Shown one piece after another: positions 11,743 to 34,624 of a stretch of 63,571 nt of DNA (within the stretch, counting starts at the first letter, position 1; each line of letters starts with the position of its first letter). Made by a program: the position numbers and the translations under genes. The stretch is from a virus: positions 1 to 63,571 of the IMG/VR virus record IMGVR_UViG_3300032214_000555. One strand, 5' to 3'. The notes beneath the pieces are model-generated. The model was not told where the DNA came from. It searched no databases and saw nothing but the letters and a program-made list of their open reading frames with translations.

Positions 11743-12098
11743 GGGGATGACTGGATTTTGACAGGAATCTTAATAAGTATAGTTGATGCAAGCAAGGTTA
11801 GATGGAAACCTTAAACCTATCACAGAGTAAAAGGCGAATATAATTACGCAATAGCTGCCTAATCCCAAAGGGAAAAGCGGTAACGGGGTTGAGAGGAGTG
11901 CCTAGGAACAGAATCCTCTCAAATTATTAAGGTCTCGTTGGAGGTGCTACCTATTAAAGTGAATCTCCCACATTTGAGAGTGGCAATGGCAAAATAGAAA
12001 CTCTATATTTTTTCAGTTTAGAAAAATTGAATAAGCTTGTGAATGAAACGTATTGGTTAATTCTTTGGACGTGGGTTCGAATCCCACCATCTCCACCA
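11743..12098 (+). ncRNA. ssrA: tmRNA (transfer-messenger RNA)
   Basis: Starts GGGGATGACTGGATTTTGACAGG and ends GGGTTCGAATCCCACCATCTCCACCA, the canonical tRNA-like ends with a 7-bp acceptor stem and encoded CCA. A tag reading frame runs from GGC at 11833 to TAA at 11862 and encodes GEYNYAIAA, close to the Bacteroidota GENNYALAA type. It would rescue stalled ribosomes and tag nascent chains. Rare in phages. Confidence 0.95.
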
Positions 12099-12117
12099 AA
12101 AAAATATTAGAAAAGAC

Positions 12118-12148
12118 TTGACATTGTTAAAAACTTTTCGTATATTTG
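12118..12148 (+). promoter_or_regulatory. Bacteroidota-type promoter for initiator tRNA
   Basis: TTG at 12118, 20 bases, TATATTTG. Starts just upstream of the tRNA at 12162. Confidence 0.85.
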
Positions 12149-12161
12149 TATCATAATAAAT

Positions 12162-12236
12162 CGCGGGGAGGATGTTGGTTTCCCACCGGTCTCATAAGCC
12201 AGGTCTACGATAGTTCGATTCTGTCTCCCGCAACCA
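12162..12236 (+). tRNA. Initiator tRNA-fMet (CAT)
   Basis: Begins CGCGGGG and ends CTCCCGCAACCA, giving the C1-A72 mismatch diagnostic of bacterial initiator tRNA. Anticodon loop CTCATAA at 12191-12197. CCA is encoded. The anticodon stem has one mismatch. Confidence 0.85.
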
Positions 12237-12257
12237 AAAAAGTTTTTTAAAAAAGAC

Positions 12258-12288
12258 TTGGATATATGAAAAAAGTTTCGTATATTTG
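12258..12288 (+). promoter_or_regulatory. Bacteroidota-type promoter for a small RNA
   Basis: TTG at 12258, 20 bases, TATATTTG, near identical to the promoters at 12118 and 12423. Confidence 0.85.
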
Positions 12289-12299
12289 TAAAACCTTTA

Positions 12300-12390
12300 A
12301 GAGTAAGTGTTGAAGCCAACATCTAATAAAACCGAATGTGTGACCACTTCCCAAATGTGGGGGGTTAATAAAGCCGGATACACTCACTCT
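12300..12390 (+). ncRNA. Small structured RNA of about 91 nt, unknown class
   Basis: Immediately follows a strong promoter and is closed by an 11-bp stem with one mismatch (AGAGTAAGTGT at 12300 with ACACTCACTCT ending 12390). Inside are a CCAC/GTGG hairpin and an AACC/GGTT pairing. It is tRNA-sized but has no TTCGA T-loop and no convincing cloverleaf. An A/T-rich run follows. Not a recognised family. Confidence 0.55.
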
Positions 12391-12422
12391 TAAAAAAAAT
12401 TAAAAAGTTTTTGTAAAAAGAC

Positions 12423-12453
12423 TTGTAAATACGAAAAAAGTTTCGTATATTTG
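12423..12453 (+). promoter_or_regulatory. Bacteroidota-type promoter for the large RNA
   Basis: TTG at 12423, 20 bases, TATATTTG. Predicted start near 12460, followed by about 1.17 kb without a credible gene. Confidence 0.85.
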
Positions 12454-12459
12454 TATTAA

Positions 12460-13635
12460 GAATTTGAAACCAATAGGTGATGAAAGATACTCGGTAATTC
12501 AGATTTAAAACGTTCTTTAAAATATAAGCACATAGTAGACTTGTTCTACATAGTGTACATCGGCAGCATATGGTCGTTAAATAAACTACGAAAGTAGGAT
12601 AAAGTGAAGTGTTTGGTTAAACACTTTGCGGCTTCGCAAGGAGCTCGGGTATGCAAGTGGAATATCATTAGACCTGTGTAGTGAGGGTAACTCCGTAGCG
12701 AAATGGTTAGATGACTGGGCTAAGTAGAAGTTCAGTTGAGGTAGGAATACCGATAAGAATAATCCATAGAATTATTGCAAGAAGTGAGAACTTAATCTCT
12801 TCTCATCATTGCGAAATTCAATATTAAAGGTTGCTTAAAACCGAAAGGTATGATGAAGTACGAGTGGTGTCGTTATCATCCTTACCTACATCTCACCAAA
12901 GAGTGGGTAGTGAAGTAATCTTAAAATATGGTGTTAGAGATAACACATCGAGTAGTTCAGTATTCTGTTGTTCAAAAGATAACGGAGCAGGTTGGTGAAC
13001 CACTACTTGAAAACATCTACAAACCAAAACTCAATTTGCAAATGACGTGCAAACTCAAAAACAAAAAGAGCAAAAGTGTTCACCAGTTACGGATGAAAGG
13101 TGCGTACATAGTAGGGAGTTGTTCCCTGCCACGATACCTCCGCAAGAGGTCTGTGATTCTTTCTAAAAGCTTCTAACATCGCGAGGTGCTAATCTGTTCG
13201 CAAAATAGAAGAAGTAGAGTAAAAAGAGAGTAGTTCGTAACTCAAAGATTGGTTAATCTATAATAACCCGCATTGAATCGTTACTATCCAAAAGATGGTG
13301 GAAAAGTTGGGAAACAATAATCCAACAAAAGATGGTTCGTTTTATGGAGTATTCTCATCCGTATCTTATCTAAATGGTTAAAGTTGGTTCGATTCCGATA
13401 TAGATAACTTCGTAGTGATTTTATAACAATAAAGTGCCTGAGCGGCAGAATTGATTTTTTCACTTAAACTAAAAATCGAATAACGGATAGCTTGGTTTTC
13501 AGTAGGGGATTTTCGCCTTAAACAATCTCAACAACGCGAATTTAGTTGATGGTAAATACGGAATGTAGCTAGTTCCATAGAAAGAACCACCCTACGAATC
13601 TTTCATTTTTAGCTGAAAATAAAAAAATTACATAT
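12460..13635 (+). ncRNA. Large structured non-coding RNA, about 1.1-1.2 kb (GOLLD/ROOL-like or new)
   Basis: A 1.2-kb stretch between promoter 12423 and the small gene at 13657 holds no convincing coding region but many perfect short hairpins: 12607-12626 (8 bp, GGTT loop), 12626-12639 (5 bp, GCTT loop), 12931-12946 (6 bp, GAGA loop), 13113-13127 (5 bp) and 13136-13150 (5 bp, CGCAA loop). A tRNA-like minihelix lies at 13366-13407. Size, structure and position beside phage tRNAs match the GOLLD and ROOL classes of giant phage RNAs, whose role is unknown. I cannot assign it to either from memory. The exact 3' end is uncertain; a weak hairpin precedes an A/T run near 13630. Confidence 0.65.
13366..13407 (+). 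other. tRNA-like minihelix within the large RNA
   Basis: TTATCTA (13366) pairs perfectly with TAGATAA (13401). The enclosed GTTGG-TTCGATT-CCGAT is a T-arm with a consensus T-loop. Acceptor plus T-arm without D and anticodon arms. Confidence 0.5.
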
Positions 13636-13656
13636 ATATTATTAAATAACAAAGAA

Positions 13657-13788
13657 ATGAAAACTCTTAACCTACATACGATTAGTTATCAACCGATGCC
13701 AACTTTGGCGTGGGGTGGCACAAACGTGTGTGATTTTAATTCGAAGAGAATTGAAATGCAGTTAGGGGCAGATATAATTTTAGGATAA
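13657..13788 (+). CDS. Small protein of 43 residues before a terminator
   Basis: ATG at 13657 after an AAAGAA purine stretch, 43 codons, TAA at 13786. The sequence has no recognised motif; it is neither strongly hydrophobic nor strongly charged. It is followed 26 bases later by a strong terminator, which supports a genuine transcript end. It could be a leader or be part of the large RNA transcript. Confidence 0.5.
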   Translation: MKTLNLHTISYQPMPTLAWGGTNVCDFNSKRIEMQLGADIILG

Positions 13789-13813
13789 AAGACTAAAATA
13801 TAATAGTGTAACA

Positions 13814-13846
13814 AACCCCTAACTTAATCAGTTAGGGGTTTTTTGT
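13814..13846 (+). terminator. Intrinsic terminator before the tRNA array
   Basis: AACCCCTAAC, 7-base loop, GTTAGGGGTT, then a TTTT run. A perfect 10-bp stem. Confidence 0.9.
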
Positions 13847-13851
13847 TGTTA

Positions 13852-13923
13852 GGGGTGGTAGCTCAGAGGCAGAGCAATTGACTGTTAATCAATAGGTCGA
13901 GATTTCGAAATTCTCCCTCCCCT
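13852..13923 (+). tRNA. tRNA-Asn (GTT)
   Basis: Cloverleaf with anticodon stem ATTGA/TCAAT and loop CTGTTAA; T-loop TTCGAAA; one acceptor mismatch. CCA not encoded. Confidence 0.85.
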
Positions 13924-33093: not shown

Positions 33094-33465
33094 ATGAAAC
33101 CAATTCACAAATTTAACGGAGGTATCGGAGCAACACTATGTAATGAGTGTAGTAAGATTATATCAGAAGGTATGACCGATGATTTGTTCTGCGATGAGCA
33201 TGGTGGTAAAACATTCAAATATACACTAATCAGAGAACGAGATGGTTTAACTATTGGTGCAAACAAGATAGCTTGGATAGAATGGAGTGGTAATGGTACA
33301 GGTAAAGCAATGCACGAAGAACCCGCAGTTGATATGAGTTTGATGTTAGAGCCATCTATCAGTTATAAGTGGATGACAACTACTGTAACCGAAATTGTAG
33401 AACAGAGAGAGGGTTATGTTAAATTTAAAACACTAAACAGTATTTACGAATTAAAATATGAATAA
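33094..33465 (+). CDS. Hypothetical protein with CxxC...C..H cluster
   Basis: A 123-residue protein. Residues 16-40 contain LCNEC then FCDEHGG, a possible zinc site. The rest is beta-rich. First gene of the thyA unit and overlapping thyA by eight bases. Unknown function. Confidence 0.65.
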   Translation: MKPIHKFNGGIGATLCNECSKIISEGMTDDLFCDEHGGKTFKYTLIRERDGLTIGANKIAWIEWSGNGTGKAMHEEPAVDMSLMLEPSISYKWMTTTVTEIVEQREGYVKFKTLNSIYELKYE

Positions 33466-34624
33466 TATAGACAAATCATATCAGGCATTACTGAAAGATA
33501 TTTTAGAGAATGGTGTAGAGAAGCAGGATAGAACCGGAACTGGCACCATATCTGTATTCGGCAGACAAATCAGACATAAGATGAGTGAGGGATTTCCTTT
33601 ACTCACTACAAAGAAGATGGCTTGGAAGACAATTGTTACAGAACTCCTATGGTTTCTACGTGGTGATACCAACATCAAATTTCTATTAGATTACGATTGC
33701 CACATTTGGGATGGTGATGCGTTTAAAAACTATACTAATGCGGTTGAAGATATTATTGACGGTTATAGATGTGGTGACATTATGGGAATACAACCACATA
33801 TTGAAGCGATGTTTAGTAATACCGATGAATTAATTCCCTTAACAAAAGAAGAATTTATTAGTAAAATAAAAAATGATAAAGATTTTGCCAAAAAGTGGGG
33901 TGATTTAGGACCAATCTATGGTAAGCAATGGAGACAGTGGCAAGGTTGGATGGATATGAATGGTAATGAGAAAGGTTCATTATGGTACGACCAGATTTTG
34001 GAAGTAGTTCATTCTCTAAAAACAAATCCAGATAGTAGAAGATTGATGGTATCGGCTTGGAATGTAGCAGAGTTGCATCAAATGGTATTACCACCTTGCC
34101 ACTATGGATTCCAATTCTACACCAGAGAGTTGAGTAACAAAGAAAGATACAGAATTTGGTTCAATAAGAATTACGAGAGTGGCATGGAATATAACGATGA
34201 ACTAATACCTGATTTTGATGACAAGTATTATGATTCAACCCCAAAGAGAGCAATATCTTTAATGTGGAATCAAAGGAGTGTGGATACATTTTTAGGATTA
34301 CCGTTTAACATTGCTTCCTACGGATTACTATTACAGATTGTAGCAAAGGAAGTGGGGATGTATGCAGACGAACTTATTGGTAATTTAGGAGATGTTCATT
34401 TGTATTCTAATCATTTAGAACAGGCAAAAGAACAAATCAGTAGAGAACCATTCAAATTACCTAAATTAGAAATAACAGAACGGAATTGGTATTTACACGC
34501 AAAGGTTAAAGAACATTTAGGTGAGAAGACATTCAAAGATAAGATATTATCTTACAGACCTGATTGTTTTGAAATAAGAAATTACCAATCACATTCAAAA
34601 TTAAGAGCACCTTTATCGAATTAA
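33458..34624 (+). CDS. thyA: Thymidylate synthase ThyA
   Basis: A 388-residue enzyme that methylates dUMP to dTMP using methylenetetrahydrofolate. Family motifs are intact: DRTGTGTISVFG, GFPLLTTKKM, ELLWFLRGDTN, the catalytic Cys214 in LPPCHYGFQF, NQRSVDTFLGLPFNIASY and NLGDVHLYSNH. It is about 120 residues longer than the usual 264, with insertions near residues 90-145 and 240-265. Phages use it to raise dTTP for replication. Overlaps the upstream gene by eight bases. Confidence 0.97.
   Translation: MNNIDKSYQALLKDILENGVEKQDRTGTGTISVFGRQIRHKMSEGFPLLTTKKMAWKTIVTELLWFLRGDTNIKFLLDYDCHIWDGDAFKNYTNAVEDIIDGYRCGDIMGIQPHIEAMFSNTDELIPLTKEEFISKIKNDKDFAKKWGDLGPIYGKQWRQWQGWMDMNGNEKGSLWYDQILEVVHSLKTNPDSRRLMVSAWNVAELHQMVLPPCHYGFQFYTRELSNKERYRIWFNKNYESGMEYNDELIPDFDDKYYDSTPKRAISLMWNQRSVDTFLGLPFNIASYGLLLQIVAKEVGMYADELIGNLGDVHLYSNHLEQAKEQISREPFKLPKLEITERNWYLHAKVKEHLGEKTFKDKILSYRPDCFEIRNYQSHSKLRAPLSN

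What the first reader, a model, noticed from the sequence alone, without database searches (positions are those of the whole stretch)
12460..13635. Giant structured RNA of about 1.2 kb between tRNA genes
It has its own strong promoter, no credible gene, and many perfect hairpins with stable loops (GGTT, GCTT, GAGA, CGCAA). GOLLD and ROOL, the giant phage RNAs of unknown function, occupy the same setting. This one may be a divergent member or a new class.
Basis: partly seen in the sequence, partly recalled or inferred. Interest (0 to 1): 0.85.

Follow-up and report, generated by a model that had tools for sequence, protein, structure and literature searches.

The report
Phage GOLLD RNA with tRNA-like tail
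This stretch of a phage genome encodes a genuine member of GOLLD, a known family of giant phage RNAs that can build hollow RNA cages, and in this phage group the RNA is directly followed by an overlooked tRNA-shaped element that can usually no longer read codons.

Summary
Rfam's GOLLD model matches 12948-13361 end to end (282.8 bits, threshold 150, E 1e-79). The ~490 nt upstream form GOLLD's 5' domain, shared by 35 diverse phage GOLLDs. Of its 98 predicted pairs, 81 show compensatory change. It is therefore a member, not a new class.

What is new here is the 3' tail, which the Rfam model does not cover. Of 81 distinct 3' flanks, 35 have a tRNA or tRNA-like structure (TLS) starting about 6-29 nt past the GOLLD end, and 22 of these are aberrant. 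Gly-type TLSs (22 copies) keep the glycine identity elements (G1-C72, C2-G71, G3-C70, U73, C35, C36). Their anticodon stem covaries strongly, but U33 or the 7-nt loop is lost in all but one. Of 429 other tRNAs in the same loci, 97% are canonical. Window, L035 and L080 keep only an acceptor/T-arm mini-TLS; the window's folds weakly.

Most likely mechanism: the promoter at 12442-12455 starts GOLLD, and the TLS marks its 3' end for RNase P. Cage formation is inferred from the solved homologue. Nothing here shows transcription, processing or charging.

The parts
12417..12461 (+). Promoter of the GOLLD transcript (TTG ... TATATTTG type, as in Bacteroidota); start of transcription near 12462 is inferred
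   Evidence: TTCGTATATTTGTA exact at 12442-12455, one of 4 exact copies in the window (10 matches with up to 2 mismatches against 1.85 expected); the ~54-nt module is 91% identical to the one at 12237-12290 and is conserved in L006, L010, L023, L028
12462..12947 (+). GOLLD 5' domain (cap-forming domain in the solved GOLLD)
   Evidence: Conserved in 35 nonredundant GOLLDs; 81 of 98 pairs with compensatory changes, 96.4% of cells paired. The first ~90 nt are variable outside close relatives
12948..13361 (+). GOLLD 3' domain, including the A-rich linker at about 13012-13068 (no tRNA in it here)
   Evidence: Rfam RF02032, 282.8 bits against a gathering score of 150, E 1.1e-79, model 1-416 of 416
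13366..13407 (+). Mini tRNA-like element: acceptor TTATCTA/TAGATAA, D-loop remnant AATGGTTA, T arm GTTGG-TTCGATT-CCGAT, no anticodon arm
   Evidence: 7/7 acceptor pairs and T-arm motif; same element at the same offset in L035 (CTTTCTC/GAGAGAG) and L080 (TAGAAGT/ACTTCTA), expected by chance 0.006. Weak in the window: z -0.26 alone
13408..13605 (+). X element, a possible pseudoknotted RNA (GTAGGG with CCCTAC in the loop of GAAAG/CTTTC), not in Rfam
   Evidence: nhmmer finds it only directly after the TLS in window, L028, L079, L084; 78% identity, few compensatory changes; no Rfam match; MFE z -0.07
13657..13788 (+). Micro-ORF of 43 aa (MKTLNLHT...W.G..VCDF) downstream of the RNA tail, probably cotranscribed
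   Evidence: Same position and start (MKTL.LHT) in L006, L010, L033, L035, L040, L047, L079, L083, L084, L085 and, as MKTLTQHT, L049; dN/dS about 0.2-0.9; no Pfam match
13813..13846 (+). Intrinsic terminator
   Evidence: 12-pair stem plus T tract, the only one in 12380-13860
12162..12236 (+). Degenerate tRNA-Met(CAT)-like gene with its own copy of the same promoter (neighbour, not part of GOLLD)
   Evidence: Rfam tRNA 16.3 bits, below threshold; not called by ARAGORN; aligned and almost unchanged in L010 and L023
12297..12395 (+). Small structured RNA with its own copy of the promoter (neighbour)
   Evidence: Terminal stem TAAGAGTAAGTG/CACTCACTCTTA becomes TAAGAATGGTTG/CAACCAATCTTA in L028 and L006

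Best explanation
The locus encodes a GOLLD RNA of about 900 nt in a phage with a Bacteroidota-type promoter. Shown here: its family, its two domains, the covariation of its structure, its promoter module, and the recurrent tRNA or tRNA-like element about 6-29 nt past its 3' end in part of the family. Inferred from the solved homologue: its copies assemble into a closed RNA-only cage. Inferred from anatomy: one transcript starts near 12462 and runs through GOLLD, the tRNA-like element, element X and the micro-ORF to the terminator at 13813-13841. The tRNA-like element is cut at its 5' side by RNase P, which releases GOLLD with a defined 3' end, much as a tRNA-like element sets the 3' end of the animal lncRNA MALAT1. 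Related GOLLDs without the element mostly end at an intrinsic terminator. In the Gly-type lineages selection also keeps the glycine identity elements while decoding is lost, so there the released (or tethered) tRNA-like piece is probably recognised by glycyl-tRNA synthetase without serving the ribosome.
For: GOLLD membership. 5' domain covariation. tRNA or TLS directly after GOLLD in 35 of 81 distinct flanks: read (the categories were assigned by eye). Aberrant loops against canonical controls: (Gly-type 13/14 aberrant against 0/11 for Gly(TCC) tRNAs elsewhere, p 3e-6; 417/429 other tRNAs canonical). Gly-type arms: anticodon stem 109/110 paired with five to six pair types per position, and GCG..CGC, U73 and CC in the loop in 22/22. 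Mini-TLS at +6/+7/+7 in three lineages, P 3e-8 before correcting for relatedness. A tRNA or tRNA-like sequence at about 10-20 nt also follows GOLLD in two Acinetobacter phages. Cage formation by a homologue: PMC12286853.
Against: No transcript, processing, charging or assembly data exist for this phage. About half of the GOLLDs examined have no tail element, and the close relatives L006 and L023 have lost it, so GOLLD does not need it. The window's own mini-TLS folds weakly (z -0.26) and may be a decayed remnant. Several Gly-type TLSs (L008a, L047, L049, L079, L127) have lost the usual T-loop sequence, which should weaken RNase P recognition. Conservation of C35-C36 would not be needed if the element were only a processing signal.
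Confidence: 0.5

Rival explanations
1. The tail elements are only decaying tRNA genes that happen to be the first members of the tRNA array behind GOLLD; they have no function of their own.
For: tRNA arrays are close by; the tail is variable, and is deleted in L006 and L023; the window copy is reduced and folds weakly.
Against: Stems are kept by compensatory change (anticodon stem 109/110 paired, five to six pair types per position) and identity bases are invariant in 22/22, while the other 429 tRNAs of the same loci are 97% canonical. Decay should hit stems and identity bases as much as U33.
Confidence: 0.2
2. The tRNA-like element stays attached to GOLLD and is a tethered cargo or handle of the RNA cage, comparable to the tRNAs or pseudo-tRNAs found in the GOLLD linker elsewhere.
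For: tRNAs occur in the linker of other GOLLDs and were proposed as cage cargo (PMC12286853); a pseudo-tRNA lies inside mycobacterial GOLLD (PMC6582537). Here the linker has no tRNA but the tail has a tRNA-like element.
Against: A tRNA-shaped element with a free 5' leader is expected to be cut by RNase P; the 3' tail is not the linker, and its place relative to the cage interior is not known to me.
Confidence: 0.2
3. The tail elements are decoys that absorb host tRNA-targeting defences (anticodon nucleases or similar) or titrate a tRNA-binding factor.
For: Altered anticodon loops on intact tRNA bodies, in phages that also carry full tRNA arrays.
Against: A decoy should keep the target loop rather than change it; no defence gene or partner was examined; mini-TLSs lack the anticodon arm altogether.
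Confidence: 0.08
4. The whole interval 12479-13608 is one 1.15-kb RNA closed by a terminal helix (GATGAAAGAT / ATCTTTCATT), a new class of giant RNA.
For: The MFE fold of 12462-13615 forms this helix.
Against: The helix is not kept in relatives: the 3' strand lies in element X, which L010, L023 and L006 lack, and the same CTTTC pairs inside X in the four clear X copies. The core is GOLLD.
Confidence: 0.02

Closest known systems
GOLLD RNA (Rfam RF02032; Weinberg et al. 2009; cryo-EM of env-38, Kretsch et al. 2025, PMC12286853)
   Same: Full-length match of the 3' domain, a separate 5' domain upstream, size near 900 nt, A-rich linker, phage genome, tRNA island.
   Different: Followed by a 3' tRNA-like element, by element X and by a micro-ORF. 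The linker carries no tRNA. The tail lies outside the Rfam model, and I found no description of it in the papers I could read.
Pseudo-tRNA inside mycobacterial GOLLD (PMC6582537)
   Same: A degenerate tRNA associated with GOLLD.
   Different: There it lies within the GOLLD gene; here it follows the 3' end. In the Gly-type lineages the stems covary and identity bases are kept.
MALAT1/mascRNA 3'-end processing (animal lncRNA)
   Same: A tRNA-like element directly after a long noncoding RNA could set its 3' end through RNase P (works-like comparison only; basis: general knowledge).
   Different: Unrelated in sequence and organism; no processing was shown here.
ROOL RNA
   Same: Giant phage cage RNA near tRNA islands.
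   Different: Different family; no ROOL match in the Rfam scans.
Non-ribosomal tRNA-Gly of staphylococci and tRNA-like structures of plant RNA viruses
   Same: tRNA bodies that keep synthetase identity but not normal decoding (works-like comparison; general knowledge).
   Different: No homology tested; charging of the phage elements is not shown.

Membership tests
GOLLD (RF02032) | Covariance-model match above the gathering score over the whole model | tested here: met
   282.8 bits against 150, model 1-416 of 416
GOLLD (RF02032) | Extensive secondary structure supported by covariation | tested here: met
   5' domain: 81 of 98 pairs with double changes, 0/500 shuffles reach the score; the 3' domain through the Rfam model
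GOLLD (RF02032) | Separate, less conserved 5' domain upstream of the conserved 3' domain | tested here: met
   Present in all 35 nonredundant relatives; weakly recognisable in an Acinetobacter phage (E 8e-8)
GOLLD (RF02032) | Phage or prophage location near tRNA genes | tested here: met
   IMG/VR virus record; tmRNA and 24 tRNAs nearby; 642-kb and 634-kb phage records hold relatives
GOLLD (RF02032) | Homo-14-mer cage and its intermolecular bridges | not testable with these tools
ROOL | Match to the ROOL covariance model | tested here: not met
   No ROOL match at the gathering threshold in the window or up to E 10 in 12100-13850
Decoding tRNA (tail elements) | 7-nt anticodon loop with U33 | tested here: not met
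   Window, L035, L080: no anticodon arm; Gly-type: only 1 of 22 has both
tRNA-Gly identity (tail elements of Gly-type relatives) | G1-C72, C2-G71, G3-C70, U73, C35, C36 | tested here: met
   22 of 22. Does not apply to the window's own mini-TLS, which lacks the anticodon arm
RNase P substrate | Cleavage at the 5' side of the acceptor stem | not testable with these tools
   Biochemical assay needed

The most novel reading that the evidence does not exclude
Part of the phage GOLLD family carries a 3' tRNA-like domain that is selected for recognition by glycyl-tRNA synthetase but not for decoding. A glycylated tRNA-like structure, released from or attached to an RNA nanocage, would then be a functional partner of GOLLD.
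Probability: 0.2. Interest if true: 0.85.

Novelty: new variant of a known kind. Interest (0 to 1): 0.6.

Why it matters
GOLLD forms one of the largest known RNA-only assemblies and its function is unknown. A recurrent tRNA-like element about 6-29 nt past its 3' end, with intact identity bases but usually a non-decoding loop, gives a concrete and testable link between the cage and the tRNA machinery (RNase P, synthetase, or tRNA-targeting defence). It also suggests where the transcript unit ends in these phages.

Tried and rejected
(1) New class of giant RNA: rejected by the full-length GOLLD hit. (2) One 1.15-kb RNA closed by a terminal helix: rejected because relatives lack the 3' strand. 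(3) ORF 12928-13176 as a gene: early stops in most relatives. (4) Element X as a known family: no Rfam match; a DNA pattern for X found only L028 and an unrelated contig, L128. (5) My first tRNA control (regex detector) was too noisy, so I replaced it with ARAGORN calls. (6) The same motif in bacterial genomes gave 23 coincidental matches and no GOLLD, so I could not test prophage GOLLDs. (7) Papers by Weinberg 2009 and 2017 and Morgado 2020 are not held, so an earlier mention of a 3' tRNA-like tail cannot be ruled out. (8) Protein-family scans of 20 window proteins gave no terminase or major capsid assignment and hence no firm taxonomy.

Full report
What is there. The window is a 63,571-base IMG/VR virus record. 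A scan against Rfam finds GOLLD, RF02032, at 12948-13361 on the + strand with 282.8 bits (gathering score 150, E 1.1e-79), covering the model from its first to its last position. The Rfam model describes only the conserved 3' domain. The 12462-12947 stretch upstream is the 5' domain: it is present in all 35 nonredundant relatives that I aligned. The consensus fold has 98 pairs, of which 81 show compensatory changes on both sides. In the control count 96.4% of cells pair, against 38-42% when partners are slid by 1-3 columns, and the covariation score of 0.633 compares with 0.237 in shuffles, none of 500 reaching it. Because the structure was derived from the same alignment, the slid control favours it, but the size of the difference leaves no doubt. 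The 900-nt RNA folds 5.5 sd better than shuffles, although only 20 shuffles were run.

Relatives. A pattern from the GOLLD core found 35 viral contigs. Of these, 33 are GOLLD by Rfam; the other two (L016, L039) are cut by the contig end, but their upstream DNA aligns to the window. A looser pattern found about 80 more, most confirmed with a profile built from the first set. Two phage records of 642 and 634 kb carry GOLLDs about 66% identical to this one through both domains. Several other carriers lie on contigs of 150-300 kb, so this fragment may come from a large phage; that is an inference.

Start of the transcript. The sequence TTCGTATATTTGTA at 12442-12455 fits the TTG ... TAnnTTTG promoter type of Bacteroidota (general knowledge). 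Four exact copies occur in the window. Those at 12137 and 12277 precede a degenerate tRNA-Met-like gene and a small structured RNA, so tRNA-like gene, small RNA and GOLLD each have their own copy of the promoter. Close relatives keep the promoter and vary the small-RNA cassettes. A start near 12462 is inferred, not shown. The ORF 12928-13176 is cut by early stops in most relatives, so no gene lies inside.

The 3' tail. The region after 13361 is where this locus differs from the textbook GOLLD. In close relatives, DNA downstream of the GOLLD end is exchanged as cassettes: L025, 93% identical to the window across its GOLLD, has two tRNA-like elements where the window has a mini element plus element X, and L006 and L023 have nothing. 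Across 81 distinct flanks (with sequences, categories by eye) I count 14 Gly-type tRNA-like elements, 5 other aberrant ones (L027, L037, L041, L042, L064), 3 mini elements (window, L035, L080) and 13 ordinary tRNAs (11 Met, 1 Thr, 1 Leu). All 35 start about 6-29 nt past the GOLLD end. Most other flanks have an intrinsic terminator. Two Acinetobacter phage GOLLDs are also followed at about 10-20 nt by a tRNA or tRNA-like sequence that the records do not annotate.

Are these elements real and unusual? ARAGORN distinct tRNAs elsewhere in the same loci; 417 have a 7-nt anticodon loop with U33, and all 11 Gly(TCC) tRNAs among them are canonical. In the GOLLD tail 13 of 14 ARAGORN-callable Gly-type elements are not (p 3e-6), and neither are L027, L037 and L041. 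I parsed 22 distinct Gly-type elements by arm and verified them letter for letter. The anticodon stem is paired in 109 of 110 cells with five to six pair types per position, the acceptor in 145 of 153, the T stem in 102 of 105. All 22 keep GCG...CGC, U73 and CC at positions 35-36, the main glycine identity elements of bacterial tRNA-Gly (general knowledge). Only one (L030) keeps U33 in a 7-nt loop. About six have lost the usual T-loop sequence. Structure and identity are conserved; decoding is not. The loci are related, so the p-values overstate the evidence.

The window's own element is of the mini type: acceptor TTATCTA/TAGATAA (13366-13372 with 13401-13407), a D-loop remnant and a T arm, but no anticodon arm. 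The pattern occurs 12 times in 2.47 Mb of both strands, three of them at +6, +7 and +7 of a GOLLD end where 0.006 would be expected. In L035 the same stem is CTTTCTC/GAGAGAG and in L080 TAGAAGT/ACTTCTA, so the pairing is kept while the letters change. Folded alone, however, the window copy is no better than shuffles (z -0.26) and L035 is only moderately so (z -1.7). The window copy may therefore be a remnant.

Element X (13408-13605) follows the element in window, L028, L079 and L084 and nowhere else among the loci by nhmmer. A GTAGGG/CCCTAC helix whose 3' strand lies in the loop of a GAAAG/CTTTC hairpin would make a pseudoknot. Similar pairings with different letters can be drawn in L008 and L049, but those alignments are uncertain. 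MFE folding gives no support (z -0.07). It is a candidate, not a demonstrated RNA. After it come a 43-aa micro-ORF found in the same place in at least 11 relatives (dN/dS 0.2-0.9) and the only terminator-like site (13813-13841).

Mechanism. The solved GOLLD (env-38, 833 nt) forms a 14-mer RNA cage, and tRNAs present in the linker of other GOLLDs were proposed as cargo (PMC12286853). A pseudo-tRNA lies inside mycobacterial GOLLD (PMC6582537). Here the tRNA-like element is at the 3' end instead. I think RNase P maturation of the GOLLD 3' end is the most likely role: the element lies a few nucleotides past the last hairpin, ordinary tRNAs and reduced acceptor/T-arm elements occupy the same place, and GOLLDs without it mostly have a terminator. 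The conserved C35-C36 and U73 in the Gly-type elements need something more, most simply recognition by GlyRS. Decay, tethered cargo and decoy functions remain open, with the weights given in the rivals.

Verdict. A bona fide GOLLD, not a new class; a new variant because of its tail, with the caution that the key original GOLLD papers could not be read here.

Noticed in passing
13657-13788: A 43-aa micro-ORF (MKTLNLHTISYQPMPTLAWGGTNVCDF...) with relatives of 41-53 aa at the same place behind GOLLD in at least 11 phages; no Pfam match.
   Followed up: partly
13408-13605; L028, L079, L084: Element X: ~200-nt conserved noncoding element, possibly pseudoknotted, always directly behind the tRNA-like element.
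   Followed up: partly
12297-12395 and the same place in L028, L006: Small structured RNA with its own copy of the GOLLD promoter; terminal stem with compensatory changes. Relatives carry other small-RNA cassettes at the same place (e.g. AATGAGGTTAGTATGCCGGTGTGG... in L010, L028, L006).
   Followed up: partly
12162-12236: tRNA-Met(CAT)-like gene that ARAGORN misses (Rfam 16.3 bits), with its own promoter copy; nearly unchanged in L010 and L023.
   Followed up: partly
11743-12098: Phage-encoded tmRNA with a short predicted tag (GEYNYAIAA); most relatives have predicted tags of 24-26 aa at their tmRNA.
   Followed up: no
L035 oriented GOLLD end +1332, L037 +6024, L076 -4403: Further mini tRNA-like elements (acceptor plus T arm only) away from GOLLD, so reduced tRNA-like elements may be more widespread in these phages.
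   Followed up: no
L047, L079, L084 behind the tail elements: Another conserved stretch (GAGGCTGATAATAACCAGAGCATGACTTGG...TTACTTTTTT) before the micro-ORF; L035, L008, L083, L085 have a different one (CAAC...GTTGTT...CATATCTT).
   Followed up: no
33458-34624: Thymidylate synthase (phrog_160, E 8e-111) with extra length relative to the profile (388 aa against 279 profile positions).
   Followed up: no
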